Origin: Aggregatilineales bacterium
GTDB taxonomy: Bacteria; Chloroflexota; Anaerolineae; Aggregatilineales; Phototrophicaceae
NCBI GenBank assembly: GCA_029975765.1
Contig: JARKOK010000529.1
Coordinates: 1-43,476, forward strand
Length of the DNA stretch: 43,476 nucleotides
Direction of reading: 5' to 3'
Shown: piece by piece, positions 524 through 21,237 of the stretch
Layout: the number at the start of each line of letters is the position of its first letter
Numbering within the stretch: position 1 is the stretch's first letter
Translations under genes and position numbers: made by a program
Notes under the pieces: generated by a model
Database searches by the model: none
What the model was told of the DNA's origin: nothing
Seen by the model: the letters and a program-made list of their open reading frames with translations, nothing else

Positions 524-1081
524 ATGCAGCCGGCCAGCCACGACGGGGGGACTTCGCGTCCCCCATATCTGGTTCTGGGTGAAATCCTGCGCCCGCATGG
601 TATCGCTGGAGAACTGCGGATGCGGGTTCTCACCGGCTACCCGGAACGCCTGCCGGACCTCAAAACCGTGTATCTTGGTCGCAGCCCGGAATCCCCGGAC
701 ATTACCTCGTATGTGCTGCAAAGTGTGCGGTTCCACCAGGAATACGCGCTGCTCAAGCTAAAAGGCGTGGACAACCGCGAGCAGGCTGACCGGCTGCGTC
801 AGCGGTTGGTCATGGTTTCGATTGACGACGCGGTGCCGCTGGATGAAGGTGAAGTCTATCTGTACCAGCTCATCGGTATGGCCGTCGAAACCGAGGACGG
901 GCAGGTATTGGGCACCGTCACCGATGTGCTGGAAACCGGAGCTAACGATGTTTACATTGTGGACAGCCCGCAGTATGGCGAAGTGCTGATTCCGGTGACT
1001 GAAGAAACCATCCTGAAAATGAATGCCGACAGCCGGCGCATCACCGTCAGACTCCCGGACGGTTTGCTCCCCAATGCTTAA
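524..1081 (+). CDS. rimM: Ribosome maturation factor RimM
   Basis: LVLGEILRPHGIAGELRMRVLTGYPERL ... GEVYLYQLIGMAVETEDGQVLGTVTDVLETGANDVYIV; start codon abuts khpA stop. Confidence 0.95.
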   Translation: MQPASHDGGTSRPPYLVLGEILRPHGIAGELRMRVLTGYPERLPDLKTVYLGRSPESPDITSYVLQSVRFHQEYALLKLKGVDNREQADRLRQRLVMVSIDDAVPLDEGEVYLYQLIGMAVETEDGQVLGTVTDVLETGANDVYIVDSPQYGEVLIPVTEETILKMNADSRRITVRLPDGLLPNA

Positions 1082-1089
1082 AACCATGC

Positions 1090-1119
1090 TTGACAAGCCA
1101 AACTATCGCTTGTTATGCT
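1090..1119 (+). promoter_or_regulatory. Putative sigma70-type promoter upstream of dprA
   Basis: TTGACA (1090-1095), 18 bp spacer, TATGCT (1114-1119). Confidence 0.55.
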
Positions 1120-1157
1120 GAAGTTTGAGCCGTTCATCAACCCTTCGAGCAGCACGT

Positions 1158-2252
1158 GTGACAGACCTTCATTACTGGTTGGGTTTCAGCCTGGTACCCG
1201 AAATCGGCCCCAAACGTTTATCCCTGCTGCTTAACCGGTTTGGTGATCTCGCCTGCGCCTGGGCAGCCAGCGAAGCGCAGTTGGCTCAGGCCGGCCTCGA
1301 TAAACAGCCGCTTGCCAATCTGGTGCAGGCGCGGCGCACGCTTGACCTTGACGCCGAAATGCAAAAGGTGGCAAAAGCCGGGGCACGCCTGCTGACGCTG
1401 GTAGATGACGAATACCCCGCGCTGCTAAAAACCGTGCCGGATGCGCCGGCGGTGCTGTACATTCGCGGCACGCTCATGCCGGACGACCAGCGCGCCCTGA
1501 GCATTGTCGGCACGCGCCGGGCGACCAGCTACGGGCGGGATGCGGCTTATCATTTTGCCAGACATCTGGCGGAACAGGGTGTGACGATCATCAGCGGTCT
1601 GGCGCATGGTGTGGATACTGCCGCTCACCGGGGCGCGCTGGATGCGGGCGGGCGCACCATTGCCGTCCTGGGCTGCGGCATAGACCGCATTTATCCGGCG
1701 GACAACCACAAACTTGCGGCTGACATCGTGCGCAGCGGTGCGCTGCTGTCCGAATTTCCGATTGGCACGCCGCCCGAAGCGTTCAACTTTCCGCGCCGAA
1801 ACCGGATTATCAGCGGCCTGACATTAGGCGTGCTGGTCGTTGAAGCGCCGGATAAGAGCGGCGCGCTGATTACGACTACCACCGCCGCCGAACAGGGGCG
1901 CGAGGTCTTTGCCGTACCGGGTAATATCTTTAGCCCGATGAGCGGCGGCACCAACCGGCTGATTCAGGATGGCGCGAAGCTGGTGATGAAGGTCGAGGAT
2001 ATTCTTGATGAGTTGAACCTGGCACACACTGCTGTGCAGACCAGCGCCATCACCGAACGCATTGCTCCGGCCAACGATACCGAAGGCCGCCTGCTGGAAC
2101 ATCTGGGCGCTGATCCTGTTCATGTAGACGATCTGACGCGCCTGTGCGGGCTGCCGGTGTCAGTGGTCAGCAGCACCCTGACCATTCTCGAACTGAAGGG
2201 GCTTGCGCGAATGGTGGGACACATGCAATATTGCTTGGTACGGACATCCTGA
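1158..2252 (+). CDS. dprA: DNA processing protein DprA/Smf
   Basis: YWLGFSLVPEIGPKRL, SIVGTRRATSYGRDAA, ISGLAHGVDTAAHRGAL, RNRIISGLTLGVLVVEA. ORF track starts at TTG 1125, but the putative promoter predicts a start near there, so GTG 1158 is the likelier start. Confidence 0.93.
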   Translation: MTDLHYWLGFSLVPEIGPKRLSLLLNRFGDLACAWAASEAQLAQAGLDKQPLANLVQARRTLDLDAEMQKVAKAGARLLTLVDDEYPALLKTVPDAPAVLYIRGTLMPDDQRALSIVGTRRATSYGRDAAYHFARHLAEQGVTIISGLAHGVDTAAHRGALDAGGRTIAVLGCGIDRIYPADNHKLAADIVRSGALLSEFPIGTPPEAFNFPRRNRIISGLTLGVLVVEAPDKSGALITTTTAAEQGREVFAVPGNIFSPMSGGTNRLIQDGAKLVMKVEDILDELNLAHTAVQTSAITERIAPANDTEGRLLEHLGADPVHVDDLTRLCGLPVSVVSSTLTILELKGLARMVGHMQYCLVRTS

Positions 2253-2271
2253 TACAGACAGAGGACGCCTG

Positions 2272-3354
2272 ATGAAACATTATTATGCGATGATTATGGC
2301 GGGCGGCGGCGGCACACGCCTGTGGCCTATGAGCCGCCAGGACATGCCCAAGCAGCTCCTGCCGCTGGTTGAAGATCATTCCATGTTCAAAATCAGCGTG
2401 GAACGCCTTGCGCCCCTGTTTACGCCCGACCGCATCTACATCGTCACCGGACGTAAATACGTGGACATCATGCGGTCGCATACGCCGGAGATTCCGGCGG
2501 AAAACTTCATCGTTGAACCCTACGGCAAGGACAGCGGCCCGGCGGCGGCGCTCGGCCTGACGGTGATTCACAAACGCGACCCGGAGGCTACCGTCGCCAT
2601 CCTGACCGCCGATCACCACATCAAACACAAGGATAAATTCCGCGAGGCGCTGGCCGCCGCTTACGAAGTCGCGCAGCAGGGTTATATCGTCACGCTCGGT
2701 ATTTCGCCCTCCTACCCCGCTACTGGCTTCGGCTATATCCGCCAGGGTGACAGCCTGTGCGAGGCTAACGGCTTCACGACCTATGTTTCGCGCGGGTTTA
2801 CCGAAAAGCCTAATGCTGTGACCGCAACCGCGTTTCTGGCGTCCGGTGAATACAGTTGGAATTCCGGCATGTTCATCTGGACGGCCAGACAGGCTTTGGA
2901 CGAATTTGCCCGCCAGCAGCCCGCCATGCACGCCAGCCTGATGAAACTGCAACCGGCGGTAGATACACCCGACTTTGAGGATAAACTCGAAGCCACCTGG
3001 AATGAAATCGCCAAGATTTCGCTCGACTATGCGGTAATGGAAGGCGCAGAGAAGATGGCCGTCATTCCGGTGGACATCGGCTGGAATGATGTCGGCAGTT
3101 GGGCGTCGCTGTACGAAGTGCTGAAGCTGGACAAGTTCGGCAACGGTTTTAAGGGGCGACAACCAGAGCGTGTCAGTCTGGACACACACAACACACTGGT
3201 GTACAGTGACAAGCTGACCGTCACCATTGGCGTGAATGACATCATCGTCATTGAAACACCCGATGCGCTGCTTATCTGCCATAAAGACCGGGCGCAGGAC
3301 GTAAAAGAAGTGGTCAATCATCTGCTGACCACCAAAAACTATAAGTATCTGTAA
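2272..3354 (+). CDS. manC: Mannose-1-phosphate guanylyltransferase (nucleotidyltransferase)
   Basis: MKHYYAMIMAGGGGTRLWPMSRQDMPKQLLPL; FTEKPNAVTATAFL; WNSGMFIW; IPVDIGWNDVGSW. ATG 2272 preferred over the ORF-track start 2203. Confidence 0.9.
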   Translation: MKHYYAMIMAGGGGTRLWPMSRQDMPKQLLPLVEDHSMFKISVERLAPLFTPDRIYIVTGRKYVDIMRSHTPEIPAENFIVEPYGKDSGPAAALGLTVIHKRDPEATVAILTADHHIKHKDKFREALAAAYEVAQQGYIVTLGISPSYPATGFGYIRQGDSLCEANGFTTYVSRGFTEKPNAVTATAFLASGEYSWNSGMFIWTARQALDEFARQQPAMHASLMKLQPAVDTPDFEDKLEATWNEIAKISLDYAVMEGAEKMAVIPVDIGWNDVGSWASLYEVLKLDKFGNGFKGRQPERVSLDTHNTLVYSDKLTVTIGVNDIIVIETPDALLICHKDRAQDVKEVVNHLLTTKNYKYL

Positions 3355-3361
3355 TTTCGGC

Positions 3362-3385
3362 ACGGACACGTTATGGCGTGTCCGT
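3362..3385. repeat. Perfect 9-bp inverted repeat (hairpin) just downstream of manC
   Basis: ACGGACACG-ttatgg-CGTGTCCGT; no T-tract. Confidence 0.7.
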
Positions 3386-3422
3386 ACACCCCATTCAATA
3401 ACTGGTATCTCAGGAAACGGGC

Positions 3423-5885
3423 ATGAGTGAGACTCTACAAGCGTACTGCGTGAAGTGCAAAACCAAACGGGACATCGCCAATCCTCAGGCGGTCTTTACC
3501 GACAAAGGCACGCCGGCGACAAAAGGTGCGTGTCCGATCTGCGGCACAACCCTGTTCCGTATGGGTGCGACCGAGGCTCACGCCCACCTGCCCAAACCTG
3601 AAAAATCCGCCGCCCCCAAAGCCACAAAAAAGCCTGCTGGCAGAAAAGCCGCACCGGCGAAAAAAAACGCTAAGACCGGCAAACCAGCCAAAAAAGCTGC
3701 CGCGAAGCCAGGTGTCAAAGGCGGCAGCGGCGGCAAACTGGTGATCGTGGAATCCCCGGCGAAGGCGCGGAGCGTCGGAAACTTTCTCGGCAAGGGGTAC
3801 ACGGTTAAAGCGTCAAAAGGTCATGTTCGTGATCTGCTGGTCACACAGTTGTCAGTAGATGTTGCCAACGACTTTGAACCCAAGTACCGTGTACCCAATG
3901 ACAAACGCGATGTAGTCAGCGAACTGAAGGCCGCCGTTGAAAAAGCCGGAGAAGTTTATCTGGCAACCGACCCCGACCGTGAAGGTGAAGCGATTGCCTG
4001 GCATTTAATCGCGGCTACCGGGCTGGACGAAGCCAAGGTGCAGCGTGTGGTATTCCACGAAATTACCAAACCGGCGATTCAGGATGCCTTCAGCCACCCG
4101 CGCGAACTCGATCTGAATCTGGTCAACGCACAGCAGGCGCGGCGCATTCTCGACCGGTTGGTCGGCTACAACATCACCGAACTGCTGTGGGAAAAAGTTC
4201 GCAACCAGTTGTCCGCCGGACGCGTGCAGAGTATTGCCGTGCGGCTGGTCGTTGACCGCGAACGCGAGATCGAAGCGTTTCGCCCGGAAGAATACTGGAC
4301 CCTGGATGCCCGGTTGCAAAAACACGCCGCCAACGGCAAACACGACGACCGTCCCTTTCTGGCCCGGTTGGTAAAAATCAAAGGCGAGGATGTCAGTTTC
4401 CACCAGGAAAGTGATGTGCGCCCGCATCTCGGCATACTGGAACGCAGTCGTTATACCGTCAGCGATGTAAAACACGGCACGCGCCAGCGCAAACCGTCAG
4501 CGCCGTTTACCACCAGCACCCTCCAGCAGGAAGCTTCGCGCCGGTTGGGTTATACCGCTCGCCGCACGATGACTATCGCGCAGCAGTTGTATGAAGGCGT
4601 GGACGTGGGCGCGGATGGTTCGGTCGGTCTGATCACTTACATGCGTACCGACAGCACCCAGGTTTCAACTCAGGCGCAGGCCGAAGCCCGCGATTTCATC
4701 CACAAACGTTTTGGCGAAAAGTATCATCCGGCCAAACCTCCGGTGTACCACACAAAAGCCAAAGGTGCGCAGGAAGCGCATGAGGCCATCCGGCCAACCA
4801 GCCTGTGGCGCGAACCCGACCAGATGAAAGCGTATCTGACCCGTGACCAGTTCCGGTTATATCAGCTTATCTGGCAGCGTTTCGTCGCCAGCCAGATGGC
4901 GAATGCCATCTACAACACGCTGCGCGTCGAAATCACCGCCGGTGAGACGGCTAACGATCTGCCATACCTGTTCCGTGTGTCCGGCAGCACTATCCGGTTT
5001 GATGGTTTTCTGCGTTTATACGAGGACTCGCGCGACGAAGATGCCACCCCGGACGAGGATGAGGGACGTATCCTCCCCGATCTGAAGGCCGGTGATCTGC
5101 TGGATTTGCTGAAGCTGCTGCCGGAGCAGCATTTCACGCAGCCCCCGCCGCGCTACACGGAGGCCACTTTAGTCCGCACGCTGGAAGAATACGGCATTGG
5201 CCGTCCCAGCACTTACGCGCCAACCGTCGCCACCATCCAGGATCGTGAGTATATTGAAAAACAGGATAAACGCCTGCTGCCAACGGAAACTGGCAAAATC
5301 GTTACCGATCTGCTGGTGAAGTACTTCCCGGACATCATGGACTACCAGTTCACCGTCCGCATGGAAAATCAACTGGACGAAATCGCGGAAGGCCACCGCG
5401 AGTGGCACGGCATGATGCGCAAGTTTTACACACCCTTCGAACAGCAGTTAGGCATCGCGCGGCAGACCATACCGCAGTTGCAGCAGGAAGAGACCATCGG
5501 TCGTAACTGCCCACAATCCGGGCATCCATTAGTTGTCCGTTATGGACGCTTCGGCAAATTCATCGGCTGTTCCAATTACCCGGAGTGCCGCTATACGGAA
5601 CCCTGGCTGGAACGCACGGGCATCGCCTGTCCGGTTTGCGGTCACACCCACCAGGGCGAGATCATTGTGCGGAAGTCGCGCAAGGGGCGCACGTTTTATG
5701 GCTGTATCCGCTACCCGGATTGTGATTACACCAGTTGGAAGCGTCCGCTTGTTACGCCCTGCCCGAACTGCGGCGGCCTGTTAATCGAACAGAACCGCAC
5801 GACGGCCCAATGTTCGGTTTGCTCTCGAACTTTCTCGCTGGAGGCGCTGGGTGAAAGCGCGGCTGATCCCGTATTAACGGACTGA
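3423..5885 (+). CDS. topA: Type IA DNA topoisomerase I with N-terminal CxxC domain and Lys/Ala-rich linker
   Basis: KLVIVESPAKARSVGNFLGKGYTVKASKGHVRDL (Toprim), YLATDPDREGEAIAWHL, SVGLITYMRTDSTQVS (catalytic Tyr), C-terminal zinc fingers; extra N-terminal domain YCVKCKTKRDI...KGACPICGTTLFRMG. Confidence 0.96.
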   Translation: MSETLQAYCVKCKTKRDIANPQAVFTDKGTPATKGACPICGTTLFRMGATEAHAHLPKPEKSAAPKATKKPAGRKAAPAKKNAKTGKPAKKAAAKPGVKGGSGGKLVIVESPAKARSVGNFLGKGYTVKASKGHVRDLLVTQLSVDVANDFEPKYRVPNDKRDVVSELKAAVEKAGEVYLATDPDREGEAIAWHLIAATGLDEAKVQRVVFHEITKPAIQDAFSHPRELDLNLVNAQQARRILDRLVGYNITELLWEKVRNQLSAGRVQSIAVRLVVDREREIEAFRPEEYWTLDARLQKHAANGKHDDRPFLARLVKIKGEDVSFHQESDVRPHLGILERSRYTVSDVKHGTRQRKPSAPFTTSTLQQEASRRLGYTARRTMTIAQQLYEGVDVGADGSVGLITYMRTDSTQVSTQAQAEARDFIHKRFGEKYHPAKPPVYHTKAKGAQEAHEAIRPTSLWREPDQMKAYLTRDQFRLYQLIWQRFVASQMANAIYNTLRVEITAGETANDLPYLFRVSGSTIRFDGFLRLYEDSRDEDATPDEDEGRILPDLKAGDLLDLLKLLPEQHFTQPPPRYTEATLVRTLEEYGIGRPSTYAPTVATIQDREYIEKQDKRLLPTETGKIVTDLLVKYFPDIMDYQFTVRMENQLDEIAEGHREWHGMMRKFYTPFEQQLGIARQTIPQLQQEETIGRNCPQSGHPLVVRYGRFGKFIGCSNYPECRYTEPWLERTGIACPVCGHTHQGEIIVRKSRKGRTFYGCIRYPDCDYTSWKRPLVTPCPNCGGLLIEQNRTTAQCSVCSRTFSLEALGESAADPVLTD

Positions 5886-5889
5886 TACT

Positions 5890-5917
5890 GCCGGGGCGCC
5901 TATGGCTGCACCCCGGC
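5890..5917 (+). terminator. Hairpin downstream of topA, possible terminator
   Basis: GCCGGGG...CCCCGGC stem; no T-tract. Confidence 0.35.
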
Positions 5918-5937
5918 TGGCTGGGTCTGAGAATTGA

Positions 5938-5967
5938 TTGTCGTAACTTTGGAATGTACTGTACAAT
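5938..5967 (+). promoter_or_regulatory. Putative promoter upstream of the 6024 gene
   Basis: TTGTCG - 18 bp - TACAAT; small palindrome TGTAC-T-GTACA overlaps the -10. Confidence 0.4.
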
Positions 5968-6023
5968 AGGCGTAGCTTAGAGCGGGTTGTTACGCGCAAT
6001 ATTGACGAAAGGCGGCAACATTT

Positions 6024-7388
6024 ATGGTGGGCAAAATACGAGATACGATTACTGGCCTGTGGCCGGTGATAAAACCATACATCCCCAAGCCCCGACAGGT
6101 TATCGTAATTGTGCTGGCCTTTTTGCTCGGCCTTACATGGGCGTATGCACTGGATCCCATCATCTTTTACAACGCCGACCCCAGCCAGCTTAACCAGGGC
6201 TGGCAGGATCAATATGTACAGCTTATTGCCGACAGTTATGCCCTGTACACGACTAACGCGCCGCCCAGTGAGGAACTTAATCAGAATACTATTATCCTGC
6301 TGCGCGCCGTTGACAACCCGCAGGAAATCACGGCTCGCCTCGGTCTGATACAGATTGACGACCTGGCCGCTCAGGCCAACCCGGTTGCGGCTCAGGCGCC
6401 GCAGCCCAATCTGCTGACCTCCCTGCGTCCCTGGATTCTTGGCTCGATTGTTGTGGCAGTTGTCGCCGTACTCGGTTCGCTGATTTACGGCTTTTACATC
6501 AGCACGATGGTCGTAGAACCTATCCGCCGTTCGCTGCGCCGCCGCCGCACCGGTCAACCAGGCAGCGCCGCTCCCGTTGAAACGGTGACAGCGATCAAAG
6601 AGTCCCGCAAAATCGCCGAGCAGTTGGCAAAAGAGGCTGCCGCCGCACCCGCTGCCAATACCTTTGGCCCGCCCGTATCGCGCCATGTTTCCATGTATTC
6701 GCCCACCCGCGCTTTTGATGACTCGTTTGCCATTGAAGATGCCAAACGCGACGATGAATTTCTGGGTGAATGCGGCGCGGTTATCTCGGAGACGGTTGGC
6801 GTGGGCGATCAGGAAAAGGTCGCCGCGATTGAAGTCTGGTTGTTCGACAAAGACGACTTCGTGCGAACGCTTACCGGCGTTTTCGCCTCTGAGTATGCCT
6901 ATAATGACCCGGCTATTCGCTCCAAGCTTGACCCCAAAGGGCCGGTTGTCCTGGCGCAGCCCGGTGCGATCATCAGCCTGGAAACCAATGCCCTGCGTTT
7001 CCAGGCGCGCATTGTGGACATCGCTTACGGTGTGGGGCCGCTGCCCCCCAACAGTTATTTCGATAAGCTGACGATTGAACTGCTGGCCTGGCGTAAGGAC
7101 GCGGCCAGCGTAGCGCAGCCGGCAGTCGTCGCGCCGGCGGCCAGCGCCCCCGTGTATGCACCGCCGCCCGCTGCCGCGCCGACCTTCACGCCCCCACCTA
7201 TGCCCAGCGCCCCGCTGCCAACCTATACGCCCCCGCCGCCGCCCACTACGCCGCCTGCTGCGCCGCCCTCTTACGGCGCGGGTGTTACCCCGCTGCAGCC
7301 GCCGCCGCTGCAAATACCGCCTGAACCACCGCGACGGCGCGACGATGATCCCTTTGGCGGCACGGGCGATTGGACGCCGGTGCAGTAG
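6024..7388 (+). CDS. Membrane protein of unknown function: two TM segments, cytoplasmic domain, Pro-rich C-terminal tail
   Basis: TM segments VIVIVLAFLLGLTWAYAL and WILGSIVVAVVAVLGSLIYGFYI; tail rich in PPPAAAPTFTPPPMPSAPLPTYTPPPPPTTPPAAPP. Confidence 0.85.
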   Translation: MVGKIRDTITGLWPVIKPYIPKPRQVIVIVLAFLLGLTWAYALDPIIFYNADPSQLNQGWQDQYVQLIADSYALYTTNAPPSEELNQNTIILLRAVDNPQEITARLGLIQIDDLAAQANPVAAQAPQPNLLTSLRPWILGSIVVAVVAVLGSLIYGFYISTMVVEPIRRSLRRRRTGQPGSAAPVETVTAIKESRKIAEQLAKEAAAAPAANTFGPPVSRHVSMYSPTRAFDDSFAIEDAKRDDEFLGECGAVISETVGVGDQEKVAAIEVWLFDKDDFVRTLTGVFASEYAYNDPAIRSKLDPKGPVVLAQPGAIISLETNALRFQARIVDIAYGVGPLPPNSYFDKLTIELLAWRKDAASVAQPAVVAPAASAPVYAPPPAAAPTFTPPPMPSAPLPTYTPPPPPTTPPAAPPSYGAGVTPLQPPPLQIPPEPPRRRDDDPFGGTGDWTPVQ

Positions 7389-16577: not shown

Positions 16578-16649
16578 GTCCCTGTAGCTCAGTGGATAGA
16601 GCGCAGCCCTCCGGAGGCTGAAGCCCGAGTTCGAGTCTCGGCAGGGACG
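16578..16649 (+). tRNA. tRNA-Arg (anticodon CCG), CCA not encoded
   Basis: Acceptor GTCCCTG/CAGGGAC, D-arm GCTC/GAGC, anticodon arm CAGCC-CTCCGGA-GGCTG, T-arm CCGAG-TTCGAGT-CTCGG. Confidence 0.95.
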
Positions 16650-16655
16650 CAGCAG

Positions 16656-16676
16656 CGGCGCGTGAGCGCCGTTTGT
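16656..16676 (+). terminator. Hairpin downstream of tRNA-Arg
   Basis: CGGCGC-GTGA-GCGCCG followed by TTTGT. Confidence 0.55.
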
Positions 16677-16681
16677 GATTC

Positions 16682-18142
16682 TCAGGGGCGAACGACTCGA
16701 AAGCCGATGGTATCGTAGCGGCACAGTGGATTCAGATGAAAATACGAGGTAATACGGGATCGTTCCTGCACACTGATGAACGACCCACCGCGTACAGCGC
16801 GTTTGGCGCGACTGCTTAAGTCCAGCGTGCCGTCCTGCGCGTTTAAACACCACTCCCATACGTTGCCGACCATATCCATCACACCATAAGGACTCGCCCC
16901 GGACGGATACTGCTTCACAGGTGTGATCCGGCGAATACGGCTCTCATAGGTGTTGCAGTGCGCCGGGTCGAACTCGCTGCCCCAGGGATACAACCGCTCA
17001 TCACTCCCCTGCGCCGCGCGCTGCCACTGGTGTTCGGTTGGCAGGGTAATCTGTAAATTCGTTTGCGCGCTTAACCAGCGGCAGTAGGCCAGCGCCTCGT
17101 ACCAGCAGATGTTGACACGGGGATAATCACCCAGGCCGGATGCAACTTCCAGCGCCTCAGGATGCGCGCGCCGCCATTCCTGCGCCGCCGGAGCAAAGTC
17201 CCACCAGCGCGCATCCCGGTAGCCATCGCTGGCATCTACGAATGCCTGGAACTGGTGGTTGGTAATCGGGTATTTACTGATGTGAAAAGCGGGAACGGCG
17301 GTGGTGTCCGTACCACTTTCCCGCTGTATCTTCACCGAACCAGCCGGGATTGCACACCATTCCAGCATATCCTGCCGGTTGGTCTGGCAGAATGACGCCA
17401 GGTTTTGCGGGTCATAATCAGGAAAGTCCTTACGAAAAGCGACAAATGCCTGGCAGCCTACCCGCCGGGTGCGGTCATGTTTCACCAGCGCCACAATCGG
17501 CCCGTACTCGCGTTCCGCTTCGCGCAGATAGGCCTGACGCTCTAACGCTTCTTCGGCTTCTACCAGAATCGCCTGCAGGTCAATGAAGCGCGACTCATAA
17601 CCGGATTCCTTCGACCGTTTTAATAGAAAGACGGCCCGATCAAAATCGCCGGCTTCCAGCGCGTCCGCCACTTCGTTAATCACAACGGTCGGATCGGGTG
17701 TCTCCACCGGCATCGGCGCCCGCAGGCGACCGGACGATGCCCGCGCGCGGCGCGTTGCCCGTTCATCGCGCTCCGCCACATAGATCGCGTTCAGCAGTTC
17801 TTTGACCGCTTTAGTGGTCAGCCCTTCGGTCAGGTCAATGGCCTGATAGGGTTTCAGTGAATCGGGCAGCGTCGTGCGCCCCTGGATCAGCACCGGGAAA
17901 ATATGTTTTCCGGCATCACGCGCCAGCAAATACTCTTTCTGACAGTATTCCGACCGTACCGAATCGGGCGACAGCAGGTAAACAAACCCCTCGCTCCGGT
18001 CAAGGTGTTTGATGATTTCATCCCACCACTTCTGCCCGGCGTGCAGTCGTTGGTCATACCATACGTCGTGTACGTCAAGAGTCTTAACAATCTGTTTGCA
18101 GTAAGGTTTGTCTACGCGGGCATAACTGACAAAAAGACGCAT
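16682..18142 (-). CDS. TIR domain - middle helical domain - FGE/SUMF1-like domain protein
   Basis: N-term MRLFVSYARVDKPYCKQIVKTL...GFVYLLSPDSVRSEYCQKEYLLA (TIR); C-term FHISKYPITNHQFQAFVDA...VNICWYEALAYCRWLS...LPTEHQWQRAAQG...YPWG...YGVMDMVGNVWEWC...RAVRGGSF...IGFRVV (FGE fold). Confidence 0.92.
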   Translation of the reverse strand: MRLFVSYARVDKPYCKQIVKTLDVHDVWYDQRLHAGQKWWDEIIKHLDRSEGFVYLLSPDSVRSEYCQKEYLLARDAGKHIFPVLIQGRTTLPDSLKPYQAIDLTEGLTTKAVKELLNAIYVAERDERATRRARASSGRLRAPMPVETPDPTVVINEVADALEAGDFDRAVFLLKRSKESGYESRFIDLQAILVEAEEALERQAYLREAEREYGPIVALVKHDRTRRVGCQAFVAFRKDFPDYDPQNLASFCQTNRQDMLEWCAIPAGSVKIQRESGTDTTAVPAFHISKYPITNHQFQAFVDASDGYRDARWWDFAPAAQEWRRAHPEALEVASGLGDYPRVNICWYEALAYCRWLSAQTNLQITLPTEHQWQRAAQGSDERLYPWGSEFDPAHCNTYESRIRRITPVKQYPSGASPYGVMDMVGNVWEWCLNAQDGTLDLSSRAKRAVRGGSFISVQERSRITSYFHLNPLCRYDTIGFRVVRP

Positions 18143-18148
18143 GATGGG

Positions 18149-19606
18149 TTATTCAAGTGTATACATGGGGCGAAAACCAATCGAGGCATACCGGTACACA
18201 GGCTTCAATATAAAATAACTGTTGATGTCTGACCGATCCTGCGGGCTGACAAACGAGCCGCCGCGTACCATTCGTCCAACTTCCCCATCACTCCCATTTT
18301 CCTGGATGGCCCGCCAGGTGAGACACCATTCCCATACATTACCGATCATGTCGTACACCCCGTAAGGGCTGACGCCACCGGGATAACAGTCTACCGGCGT
18401 GGTGCTGCGAAAGCCGCTTTCCCGTGTATTGCAGCGGGAAACATCAAAGCGCCGTCCCCAGGGAAATGCACGTCCGCCGTCACCCTGAGCGGCACGAATC
18501 CACTGAACTTCGGATGGCAGCGTAATGGGCAAACCGGTCTTGCTGCCTAACCACCGGCAAAAAGCCATAGCCTCATACCAGGTGAGATTGCTGCGCGGGT
18601 GTAGGTCACCGGGAAACGCTGGCGGCAGCGGCACAGGGTTATTATGATGCCACTGAAGTACATGCGGCGCATAATTCCACCAGCGGTCATCCTGGTAGCC
18701 ATCCGGGGCATCAATGAAGGACTGGTACTGCTCGTTAGTTACCGGATATTTGCTGATGCGAAATGCCGGGAGGCGATGTGTAGTCTTACGCCTGTTCTGC
18801 TCCACCACAACTTTACCAGCCGGCACATCACACCATTCCAGTGCCGGCAGCGCGCGCAGACACAGCGCCGCGAGATTCTCCGGGTCATAATGGGGGAAAT
18901 TGGCATGAAAGGCCAGAAAGGCTTCATAGCCAACCTTGTATGTGCGTTTCTGCCGCAGCAGCGTCACAATCGTGTCATACTCACGTTCGACCTCACGCAT
19001 ATAAGCCTGCTGGTTCAGCGCGGACTCGGCTTCTTCAAGCATGGCTGACAGATTGATAAAACGCGGCTCGTACCCGTGTGACTGCGCCTGCTTCAGCAGA
19101 AAGACGGCCCGGTCGAACTCACCCCGATCGAGTGCCGCCGCCGCTTCGGGGATAGCCGTCACCGGATCAAACGGCGGCGCTTGCAGCAGCATACGAGATA
19201 CCTGCACGTCGGGCGGTTTCATCCGGCCTTCGCGTTCGGCCATGTAGATCGAATTCAGCAGCACGGAGACAGCCCGCGCCTCCAGGCCATTGCTCAAATC
19301 CACATATTGAATATCCTGCAGCGCCGCCGGGATGGAGGTATTCGGTTGAATAAGAACCGGAAAAATGAATTTTCCCAGATTCTGCGCGATGGCGTATTCT
19401 TTCTGGCAGTAGGGTGACTTAACGGACTCCGGCGACAGCAAATAAATAAATCCCTCACACCAGCTTAACTGACGTAGAATTTCGTCCCACCATTTCTGGC
19501 CGGCGTGCATACGATGATCAAACCAGACCTCATGCACGTTAAGCGTTTCGACAATCTGGATACAGTATGGTTGATCTACGCGAGCATAACTGATGAAAAG
19601 ACGCAC
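18149..19606 (-). CDS. TIR domain - middle helical domain - FGE/SUMF1-like domain protein (tandem paralog)
   Basis: VRLFISYARVDQPYCIQIVETLNVHEVWFDHRMHAGQKWWDEIL...LLSPESVKSPYCQKEYAIA; YDMIGNVWEWCLTW...RMVRGGSFVS...IGFRPM. GTG 19606 aligns with the neighbour's start; ORF track start is TTG 19612. Confidence 0.92.
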   Translation of the reverse strand: MRLFISYARVDQPYCIQIVETLNVHEVWFDHRMHAGQKWWDEILRQLSWCEGFIYLLSPESVKSPYCQKEYAIAQNLGKFIFPVLIQPNTSIPAALQDIQYVDLSNGLEARAVSVLLNSIYMAEREGRMKPPDVQVSRMLLQAPPFDPVTAIPEAAAALDRGEFDRAVFLLKQAQSHGYEPRFINLSAMLEEAESALNQQAYMREVEREYDTIVTLLRQKRTYKVGYEAFLAFHANFPHYDPENLAALCLRALPALEWCDVPAGKVVVEQNRRKTTHRLPAFRISKYPVTNEQYQSFIDAPDGYQDDRWWNYAPHVLQWHHNNPVPLPPAFPGDLHPRSNLTWYEAMAFCRWLGSKTGLPITLPSEVQWIRAAQGDGGRAFPWGRRFDVSRCNTRESGFRSTTPVDCYPGGVSPYGVYDMIGNVWEWCLTWRAIQENGSDGEVGRMVRGGSFVSPQDRSDINSYFILKPVYRYASIGFRPMYTLE

Positions 19607-19833
19607 GATCAAAAACCTATTTAATAGTCAGTATGACACGATTAGCAGTCTGTCGTGACAATGCGGAAGGTGCTAATATGTTTATTATATCAGGCCTTTT
19701 TAAAAACAATTTCATTTTATTACAGAACCGTAATGTCCTTAACGATTCCTTATCGCCCGCTTACGGTGAATCGTCGCTGTATCAGTATGCGTATTGTAAG
19801 CCTGGATAGTTGTAAGAAACCAGCAGATATTTG

Positions 19834-19854
19834 TGTTCGTTCGGTGAACGAACA
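19834..19854. repeat. Perfect 9-bp palindrome in AT-rich intergenic region
   Basis: TGTTCGTTC-ggt-GAACGAACA. Confidence 0.75.
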
Positions 19855-20070
19855 ATCCCCTTTAGCTGCACCCTTATTAATCTTGCCACAAAGTTTGAAT
19901 TTTTGAATTTGTGTTACATGAAGGTACTGTAGATATTTTATGATTATAATTTGTTACCCGTAAAGGTCGCTCGAACATATATTATATTTATGGATGCTGA
20001 ATAGACACTCAGCCCGAATGGTGCCAGAATGACTGGAAACGGTGGCGTATTCCGGGTTATCATTCACGCT

Positions 20071-21237
20071 ATGTCTGTCTCCCGTTTTCGAAAACTCTTT
20101 TTTTCCTACTGGCACTGGATCGCGCGCGCCGGGATTGCCTGGTTCATTCTCATCCGGCTGGCGCCCGCCCCGCCCCGCGCGCCGCTGGGTGTGCCACAAA
20201 CCGTACAGACGGTGAAACCGATTGTCTGCGTTCACACCCGGCTGATTGACGAAGTTTACGAATGGACGATCCAGCGGTCATTGCAGCGGGTGCGCGAAAT
20301 GGGCGCAGATACCATCGTGGAATTCTTCCCCTGGGCTTACGCCGAACCCGCACCCGGCGCTTATAACTGGACATCGTTTGACCGGATAATCAAACACGCC
20401 CGCAATCAGGGGCTGCACATTATCGCTCGCATGGGACTTGTCCCCGCCTGGGCGCGGCCAGATACCGAAACCGGAAGCACCACCCTTAACACGCTGCCTG
20501 ATGAATCGTTTGATGAGTTCGCGGCTTTCGTGGCAGCCTTTGCCGCCCGTTATGCCGGCGTGGTAGACCATATCATCATCTGGAACGAACCTAACCTGGC
20601 CTTCGAATGGGGCTATCGCGCGGTTGACCCGGCAGCTTATGTGCGGCTGTTACAGGCGGTGTACGCGCCAGCGCACGCCGCGAACCCCAACGTCGTTATC
20701 CTCGCTGCGCCGCTGGCACCCACGCTCGAACCCGCCGGCAGCCCACATGGATTGAATGACCTGTTATATCTGGAAGCGATCTACGAGGCGGGTGCCGCGC
20801 CTTATTTCGACGCGCTGGCAATGCATACCTATGGTTTTACCGATCCGCCAGAAGCCGAACCCGCGCCCGAAGCCCTCAATTTCCGCCGCGCCGAACTGCT
20901 GCACGCGATCATGGAACAGTATGACTATTCCGGCAAACCGGTCTACATCACCGAAAGCGGCTGGAACGATCACCCGCGTTGGACAAAAGCGGTACGCCCC
21001 TCCCAGCGGGTCGCCTATACGATTAACGCATTTAAATGGGCGGAGGACAACTGGCCCTGGCTGGATAAACTGTGTGTCTGGGCGCTGCGCTATCCAATTT
21101 CGACCCGCAGCTACCCGGACAACTTTACACTGCTGACGGCTGATTTTGAGCCAAAGCCGATTTATACCGCCATTCAAGCCTACGCGCGCGGCTGGGAGAA
21201 TACCGAGGATTTATGGCTGCCCGCCCCTGGCGAGTGA
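20071..21237 (+). CDS. Membrane-anchored glycoside hydrolase-like protein (TIM-barrel, cellulase/GH39-like)
   Basis: N-terminal TM segment; HIIIWNEPNLAFEWG (acid/base NEP motif) and KPVYITESGWNDHP (nucleophile-like TESGW). Confidence 0.82.
   Translation: MSVSRFRKLFFSYWHWIARAGIAWFILIRLAPAPPRAPLGVPQTVQTVKPIVCVHTRLIDEVYEWTIQRSLQRVREMGADTIVEFFPWAYAEPAPGAYNWTSFDRIIKHARNQGLHIIARMGLVPAWARPDTETGSTTLNTLPDESFDEFAAFVAAFAARYAGVVDHIIIWNEPNLAFEWGYRAVDPAAYVRLLQAVYAPAHAANPNVVILAAPLAPTLEPAGSPHGLNDLLYLEAIYEAGAAPYFDALAMHTYGFTDPPEAEPAPEALNFRRAELLHAIMEQYDYSGKPVYITESGWNDHPRWTKAVRPSQRVAYTINAFKWAEDNWPWLDKLCVWALRYPISTRSYPDNFTLLTADFEPKPIYTAIQAYARGWENTEDLWLPAPGE

What the first reader, a model, noticed from the sequence alone, without database searches (positions are those of the whole stretch)
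16682..19606. Tandem TIR-FGE fusion genes: candidate NAD-depleting conflict system with diversified sensor
Two adjacent (6-nt gap) 486-aa proteins share a TIR domain keeping the SPxSVxSxYCQKEY segment where TIR NADases carry the catalytic Glu, a conserved middle domain and a C-terminal FGE/SUMF1 fold. FGE/C-type-lectin folds are known ligand-binding scaffolds in bacterial conflict and DGR systems, and TIR domains are known NAD-consuming effectors. The pair looks like an effector-plus-sensor design with two recognition specificities. No separate sensor or nuclease gene lies nearby.
Basis: partly seen in the sequence, partly recalled or inferred. Interest (0 to 1): 0.7.

Follow-up and report, generated by a model that had tools for sequence, protein, structure and literature searches.

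The report
Tandem TIR–lectin-fold putative immune sensor genes
Two neighbouring bacterial genes each join a TIR enzyme domain, of the kind that destroys the cell's NAD, to a binding domain like those that serve as invader sensors in related bacteria, and they sit in a swappable slot beside a tRNA gene, so they look like fixed-specificity members of a bacterial immune-receptor family.

Summary
In detail: two adjacent genes (16682-18142 and 18149-19606, minus strand, 6-nt gap) encode TIR + ~107-aa helical middle domain (MID) + FGE/C-type-lectin fold. Both keep an intact TIR NADase pocket; both have lost the FGE catalytic cysteines. New here: (1) A and B are not a recent duplicate but two old lineages. 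(2) They fill a slot between a conserved tRNA-Arg(CCG) and a core gene; the slot is empty (27-65 nt) in six relatives and carries one TIR-MID-FGE or other cargo elsewhere. They are therefore accessory, not part of the neighbouring pathway. (3) A sister clade of TIR-MID-FGE genes, also in this genome, forms an operon with a TIR-NACHT-HEAT (NLR-like) protein. (4) The full family was found only in Aggregatilineales (Chloroflexota). (5) Other TIR-FGE fusions in the same bacterial family are true diversity-generating-retroelement targets; the window pair is not, and it evolves under purifying selection. Best reading: stand-alone, germline-fixed TIR NADase/lectin-sensor conflict proteins. No activity, ligand or phage phenotype has been tested. 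New variant of a known, predicted kind.

The parts
16682..18142 (-). gene A: TIR-MID-FGE protein, 486 aa
   Evidence: ORF; Pfam TIR_2 + FGE-sulfatase; AF2 mean pLDDT 91
17789..18142 (-). gene A TIR domain (aa 1-118), with S6, D30, S64, E70
   Evidence: AF2 model 83, Foldseek 88
17933..17935 (-). codon of candidate catalytic Glu E70 of gene A
   Evidence: aligned to Cat1 E74; 62 of 64 family members
17375..17698 (-). gene A middle helical domain MID (about aa 149-256)
   Evidence: family HMM; helices in AF2 model
16685..17374 (-). gene A FGE/C-type-lectin-fold domain (about aa 257-486), catalytic Cys pair absent
   Evidence: Pfam; Foldseek to FGE, EgtB, TvpA; residue counts
18143..18148 (.). 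6-nt gap between B stop and A start
18149..19606 (-). gene B: TIR-MID-FGE protein, 485 aa, GTG start; upstream gene of the pair
   Evidence: orthologue starts
19253..19606 (-). gene B TIR domain (aa 1-118)
19397..19399 (-). codon of candidate catalytic Glu E70 of gene B
18857..19168 (-). gene B middle helical domain MID
18161..18850 (-). gene B FGE/C-type-lectin-fold domain
16578..16650 (+). tRNA-Arg(CCG): one border of the accessory slot (conserved in relatives)
   Evidence: Rfam; ARAGORN
20029..21237 (+). GH-like gene: other border of the slot, core gene of the order (anchor, not part of the system)
   Evidence: 56 of 61 relatives; slot analysis

Best explanation
Each gene encodes a self-contained cytoplasmic conflict (immune-like) protein. 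The C-terminal FGE/C-type-lectin domain, no longer an enzyme, binds a foreign or damage-associated ligand. The middle helical domain couples binding to self-assembly. The N-terminal TIR then cleaves NAD+ and stops growth or kills the cell. A and B are two old lineages with different binding faces, kept side by side in an accessory-gene slot next to tRNA-Arg(CCG). Shown here: architecture, intact TIR pocket residues, loss of FGE catalytic cysteines, slot presence/absence, absence of a DGR, purifying selection. Inferred: NADase activity, oligomerisation through MID, ligand sensing, growth arrest and anti-phage role.
For: TIR pocket: the profile aligns the family to Cat1 (E 3.8e-7). Cat1 S7, D33, S68, E74 line its NAD site, and D33A, S68A and E74A were defective in causing growth arrest (PMC12162218). 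The equivalents S6, D30, S64, E70 occur in 60, 64, 62 and 62 of 64 family members. Foldseek of the TIR model is led by SPARTA TIR-APAZ and SARM1, with Cat1 also near the top. The FGE fold is confirmed (including DGR protein TvpA 2y3c), and both FGE cysteine positions are non-Cys in A. Sensor role by homology: TIR-FGE fusions in relative G030 are DGR targets whose C-terminal FGE segment is mutated at template adenines (26/27 mismatches in L282). The homologous segment here is more variable than the FGE core (1.90 vs 1.27 bits, p=0.002). Accessory slot: empty in six relatives, filled or swapped in others. Sister clade forms an operon with TIR-NACHT-HEAT.
Against: No activity data. TLR TIRs also carry a Glu in the equivalent motif. 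Two of 20 slot-clade members lost E70 (G016 Q, G263 A), so activity may be dispensable in this clade. The gene is in one place family-wide and looks largely vertically inherited, unusual for a defence gene. No phage or plasmid record carries the full architecture. The FGE evolves no faster than the TIR.
Confidence: 0.55

Rival explanations
1. The TIR-MID-FGE proteins are effector or adaptor halves of a bacterial NLR-like pair: a TIR-NACHT-HEAT receptor assembles on a trigger and recruits TIR-MID-FGE through TIR-TIR contacts. The window genes are orphan copies that serve such receptors (the genome's own copy on contig C365, or other TIR receptors) in trans.
For: 31 members of the sister clade lie directly downstream of a TIR-NACHT-HEAT-type gene, several overlapping by 4 nt (Pfam); own genome has it (L071). 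E70 is kept in 31/31 operon members but in 26/31 partner TIRs, so the TIR-MID-FGE TIR looks like the active one. In some loci the partner has shrunk to HEAT repeats.
Against: At least seven genomes have the slot copy without a sister-clade copy in the strong MID matches (draft genomes). Slot clade and operon clade are divided by one branch with 100/100 support, and no NTPase defence gene is near the window pair.
Confidence: 0.22
2. A regulatory or physiological sensor: the TIR is a scaffold or weak signal-producing enzyme and the FGE domain reads an endogenous glycan or protein, linked to the adjacent GH/solute-binding/glycosyltransferase genes.
For: Conserved divergent neighbourhood with GH, SBP and glycosyltransferase genes across the bacterial family; purifying selection in all domains; loss of E70 in two syntenic members.
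Against: GH is a core gene in 56/61 relatives, while the TIR-MID-FGE gene is missing from an otherwise intact locus in six, with 27-65 nt left between tRNA and GH. Unrelated genes occupy the slot in others. So it is a neighbour by position, not a pathway member.
Confidence: 0.12
3. Self/non-self or contact-dependent competition protein (kin recognition or interbacterial immunity), with the FGE domain binding a competitor's product; FGE-like proteins have been proposed as type VI secretion immunity proteins.
For: Literature lead only (Lopez et al. 2021, cited in PMC9612521); the lineage is rich in TIR and FGE proteins.
Against: No secretion-system or toxin gene among the window proteins scanned; an attached TIR makes little sense for a pure immunity protein.
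Confidence: 0.06
4. FGE/EgtB-type enzyme (formylglycine generation, or ergothioneine/ovothiol/selenoneine synthesis).
For: Pfam and NCBIfam name similarity.
Against: NCBIfam scores 56-72 bits against cut-offs of 360-420. Positions equivalent to the FGE catalytic cysteines are S457 and S462 in A; most family members have S/G and A/S/V there. No DinB-type metal-binding domain.
Confidence: 0.02

Closest known systems
DGR-diversified C-type-lectin/FGE antigen sensors of multicellular bacteria (Dore et al. 2024, PMC10907252)
   Same: C-terminal FGE/CLec ligand domain joined to conflict-system domains; TIR named as an N-terminal effector of some targets; filamentous Chloroflexi among the hosts
   Different: Window genes have no reverse transcriptase, template repeat, Avd or adenine-rich variable region; no NTPase; specificity appears fixed
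FGS-centred conflict systems (STAND NTPase-FGS with TIR or other effectors; eLife 2021 PMC8195603; eLife 2020 PMC7159879)
   Same: FGS as predicted intracellular invader sensor; TIR among the effectors
   Different: Here TIR is joined directly to FGE by a lineage-specific helical MID with no NTPase; in the sister clade the NACHT sits on a separate TIR-NACHT-HEAT protein
Cat1 (CARF-TIR, type III CRISPR; PMC12162218)
   Same: TIR pocket residues S, D, S, E; sensor + TIR in one protein
   Different: Cat1 sensor is a CARF domain for cyclic oligoadenylate; here an FGE/lectin fold; NAD cleavage not shown here
SPARTA TIR-APAZ short prokaryotic Argonaute
   Same: TIR fold is the top structural match
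   Different: No Argonaute or APAZ
Thoeris (ThsB TIR + ThsA)
   Same: Weak TIR similarity (PADLOC ThsB)
   Different: No ThsA (SIR2/SLOG) gene among the window genes scanned
Bacterial NACHT/Avs NLR-like proteins
   Same: Sister-clade partner is TIR-NACHT-HEAT
   Different: Window pair has no NTPase; the HEAT C-terminus and TIR-FGE partner match no named PADLOC system over their length

Membership tests
TIR NADase | TIR fold | tested here: met
   Pfam TIR_2; AF2 + Foldseek: SPARTA, SARM1, Cat1, AbTir
TIR NADase | catalytic Glu in alpha-C and supporting pocket residues | tested here: met
   E70, D30, S64, S6 align to Cat1 E74, D33, S68, S7; 62/64, 64/64, 62/64, 60/64 in family
TIR NADase | NAD+ hydrolysis on activation | not testable with these tools
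   needs biochemistry
FGE (formylglycine-generating enzyme) | active-site cysteine pair | tested here: not met
   A has S457 and S462 at the two positions (human C336 and C341, own knowledge); family mostly S/G and A/S/V
EgtB/OvoA/SenA sulfoxide synthases | full-length family score and N-terminal DinB metal site | tested here: not met
   56-72 bits vs cut-offs 360-420; N-terminus is TIR
DGR variable protein | RT, Avd, template repeat with adenine-directed differences to VR | tested here: not met
   no RVT_1 in own genome; no non-coding repeat of the 3' ends found in window or fetched own-genome contigs, AAY codons 2 of 57. Met in relatives L282, L284, L285, L287
STAND-FGS conflict system | STAND NTPase fused to FGS or to the adaptor in the locus | tested here: not met
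   window pair has no NTPase; no STAND NTPase among the window proteins scanned
TIR-NACHT-HEAT + TIR-MID-FGE pair (described here) | upstream TIR-NACHT-HEAT gene | tested here: not met
   window upstream neighbour is the divergent GH gene; slot clade split from operon clade 100/100
Thoeris | ThsA partner | tested here: not met
   no SIR2/SLOG-STALD gene among the window proteins scanned with Pfam
Antiphage defence system | protection against phage | not testable with these tools
   no known system matched; only partial TIR hits in PADLOC

The most novel reading that the evidence does not exclude
TIR-MID-FGE is a previously undescribed, Aggregatilineales-specific immune-receptor family with three deployments in one bacterial family: (i) stand-alone fixed-specificity receptors in a tRNA-Arg(CCG) slot (the window pair), (ii) a paired-NLR arrangement with a TIR-NACHT-HEAT protein that can shrink to HEAT repeats, and (iii) related TIR-FGE proteins diversified by DGRs. 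Fixed and hypermutated versions of one TIR-lectin receptor would be bacterial analogues of germline-encoded and somatically diversified receptors.
Probability: 0.3. Interest if true: 0.72.

Novelty: new variant of a known kind. Interest (0 to 1): 0.52.

Why it matters
FGE/C-type-lectin sensors in bacterial conflict systems are predicted, but the papers consulted describe none with a demonstrated ligand or activity. A compact 486-aa protein holding both a candidate sensor and a TIR with an intact NAD pocket, with a fixed sequence and here a tandem second version, is a tractable test case. The sister operon with a TIR-NACHT-HEAT protein resembles paired NLRs, and DGR-diversified cousins in the same bacterial family allow fixed and hypermutated forms of the same receptor design to be compared directly.

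Tried and rejected
Recent tandem duplication: rejected. A groups with G001/G263/G024 copies (98/91) and B with G009/G016 and most of the genus (99/96). DGR targeting of the window pair: rejected. Positive selection on the FGE: not seen; where synonymous sites were not saturated, dN/dS was mostly 0.02-0.2 in the TIR, MID and FGE domains, and many comparisons were saturated. Membership of the GH neighbourhood pathway: rejected by empty slots. FGE/EgtB enzyme: rejected. Conserved downstream partner gene: none found. Phage or plasmid carriage of the full architecture: none. Promoter and terminator scans were not clearly above shuffles. MID fold: helical in the model, no Pfam match even at E 5.

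Full report
OBSERVATION. The window holds two adjacent minus-strand genes: A 16682-18142 (486 aa) and B 18149-19606 (485 aa, GTG start), with a 6-nt gap. Both match Pfam TIR_2 at the N-terminus and FGE-sulfatase at the C-terminus far above cut-off, and share a middle domain (MID) of about 107 residues with no Pfam match. AF2 of A gives mean pLDDT 91, with a TIR fold, helical MID and FGE fold. Foldseek matches the C-terminus to FGE, EgtB, PvdO and the DGR variable protein TvpA. A model of the TIR alone is closest to SPARTA TIR-APAZ and SARM1, with Cat1 and AbTir also matched.

CATALYTIC STATE. A TIR profile aligns to Cat1 (9mud, E 3.8e-7). In Cat1 the residues S7, H8, N9, N10, D33, S68 and E74 of one TIR (with K121 and Y122 of another) line the NAD site, and N10A, D33A, S68A and E74A were all defective in causing growth arrest (PMC12162218). 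The positional equivalents here are S6, Y7, A8, R9, D30, S64, E70; S, D, S and E are identical. Across 64 full-length family members S6 is kept in 60, D30 in 64, S64 in 62, E70 in 62. The two E70 exceptions (G016 Gln, G263 Ala) are both in the window's clade. TLR TIRs also carry the Glu motif, so the Glu alone is not proof. The FGE catalytic cysteine positions are serine in A (S457, S462) and non-Cys in most members; EgtB/OvoA/SenA scores are far below cut-off. The FGE is therefore probably a binding scaffold.

FAMILY. Full-length relatives are numerous in the same genus, family and order. In a draw of 201 genomes across the phylum, listed matches outside the order cover essentially only the FGE part. 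The one clear full-length match at high identity in the named genome collection is an Aggregatilineales bacterium. The IQ-TREE tree of 64 members separates 20 genes lying next to the GH-like gene (the window's clade) from 31 genes lying downstream of a partner gene, a single split at 100/100. The partner is TIR-NACHT-HEAT, about 1100-1450 aa; in some loci it is reduced to HEAT repeats. This genome carries one such operon on contig C365 (L071: 1056-5186 and 5208-6737). Operon members keep E70 in 31/31; partner TIRs keep the Glu in 26/31.

A AND B ARE OLD. A groups with the single copies of G001, G263 and G024 (98/91); B with G009 (75% identical) and G016 and then most of the genus (99/96). Two lineages therefore exist at one locus, and only this genome, among those examined, has both. 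Ancestral tandem with reciprocal loss, or cargo exchange at the slot, would both explain this; not resolved.

THE SLOT. A tRNA-Arg(CCG) at 16578-16650 lies about 31 nt past the stop of A, and the same tRNA is found at this place in relatives. Between it and the GH gene there are only 27-65 nt in G005, G006, G007, G012, G014 and G023; one TIR-MID-FGE in G001, G009, G016 and G027; TIR-MID-FGE plus other genes in G010 and G011; and unrelated genes in G020, G021 and G031. In other genomes the tRNA was not in the fetched piece. The GH gene is core (56/61 genomes). The TIR-MID-FGE genes are thus accessory cargo at a stable tRNA-side slot, not members of the neighbouring pathway. In G011 a second gene in the slot has a sub-threshold match to the PIN domain of the TPR-GreAB-C-PIN conflict system. 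At least seven draft genomes have the slot copy without a sister-clade copy in the strong MID matches, so the slot genes probably do not depend on the TIR-NACHT-HEAT operon.

DIVERSIFICATION. This genome has no RVT_1 match and there is no template-repeat-like copy of the gene ends in the window or fetched contigs. Selection is purifying in all domains, though synonymous sites are often saturated. The FGE is as conserved as the TIR in the window's clade (mean identity 51% each). Within FGE, the segment homologous to DGR variable regions (457-478) is more variable than the core (1.90 vs 1.27 bits, p 0.002), and the preceding loop 433-448 is the most variable of all. In relative G030, a 532-aa TIR-(MID-like)-FGE gene is followed by an RT, an Avd-like gene and a template repeat: 26 of 27 differences between template and variable repeat are at template adenines. 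Two G018 loci and another G030 locus show 19/19, 18/18 and 15/15, though there the N-terminus of the target is cut or not TIR. This shows directly that the C-terminal FGE segment of a TIR-FGE fusion is under targeted diversification elsewhere in the same bacterial family, which is the strongest support for a sensor role here.

MECHANISM. Most likely: ligand binding by FGE drives MID-mediated assembly; TIRs come together and cleave NAD+; the cell stops. Shown: domains, pocket residues, family, slot, lack of DGR. Inferred: binding, assembly, NAD cleavage, defence. It works like a TIR NADase effector with a built-in sensor; it is not a member of the DGR, STAND-FGS, Thoeris or FGE-enzyme families, since defining features were tested and not met.

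NOVELTY. TIR effectors with FGS/CLec sensors are a predicted kind (PMC7159879, PMC8195603, PMC10907252). In the literature searched no description of a TIR-MID-FGE family, its TIR-NACHT-HEAT operon or the tRNA-Arg slot was found. Literature coverage is open-access only. Limits: unnamed draft genomes (own genome 594 contigs, 6.65% contamination), own ORF calling, no experimental data.

Noticed in passing
L282 (G030:C201:8000-19000) 3989-7267: Complete DGR whose variable protein is a TIR-(MID-like)-FGE fusion, with RT, Avd-like gene and TR; 26/27 TR/VR differences at adenines. Further FGE-targeting DGRs in L284, L285 (G018) and L287 (G030), all differences at adenines; L283 (G030) has a TIR-FGE gene, RT and a similar repeat (ungapped comparison only).
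   Followed up: partly
L071 (G000:C365) 1056-6737 and L083-L094, L223-L256: Conserved operon of TIR-NACHT-HEAT (1100-1450 aa) and TIR-MID-FGE; in L061 and L064 the upstream partner is HEAT repeats only, and in L056 and L085 its NACHT P-loop and TIR Glu look degenerate.
   Followed up: partly
own genome G000: 40 TIR_2 matches in one 6-Mb draft genome, 3-62 in 31 genomes of the family; at least 7 TIR-FGE fusions in G000.
   Followed up: partly
window 16578-20029 and homologous loci: Slot between tRNA-Arg(CCG) and the GH gene holds varied cargo in relatives: GH10 xylanase-like, Na/H antiporter + flavodoxin-like, AlaX-like, DoxX, a possible TPR-GreAB-C-PIN gene (sub-threshold).
   Followed up: partly
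L252 6306-7448, L253 1526-2641, L259 1-660: Proteins of about 370-380 aa with a MID-like domain but no TIR or FGE match under the family HMMs, next to a conserved gene beginning MTEPLIYD (L252, L253); function unknown.
   Followed up: no
L058 9123-10646 (G016), L225 714 (G263): Syntenic TIR-MID-FGE members with the catalytic Glu replaced by Gln or Ala: possible natural pseudo-enzymes in the slot clade.
   Followed up: no
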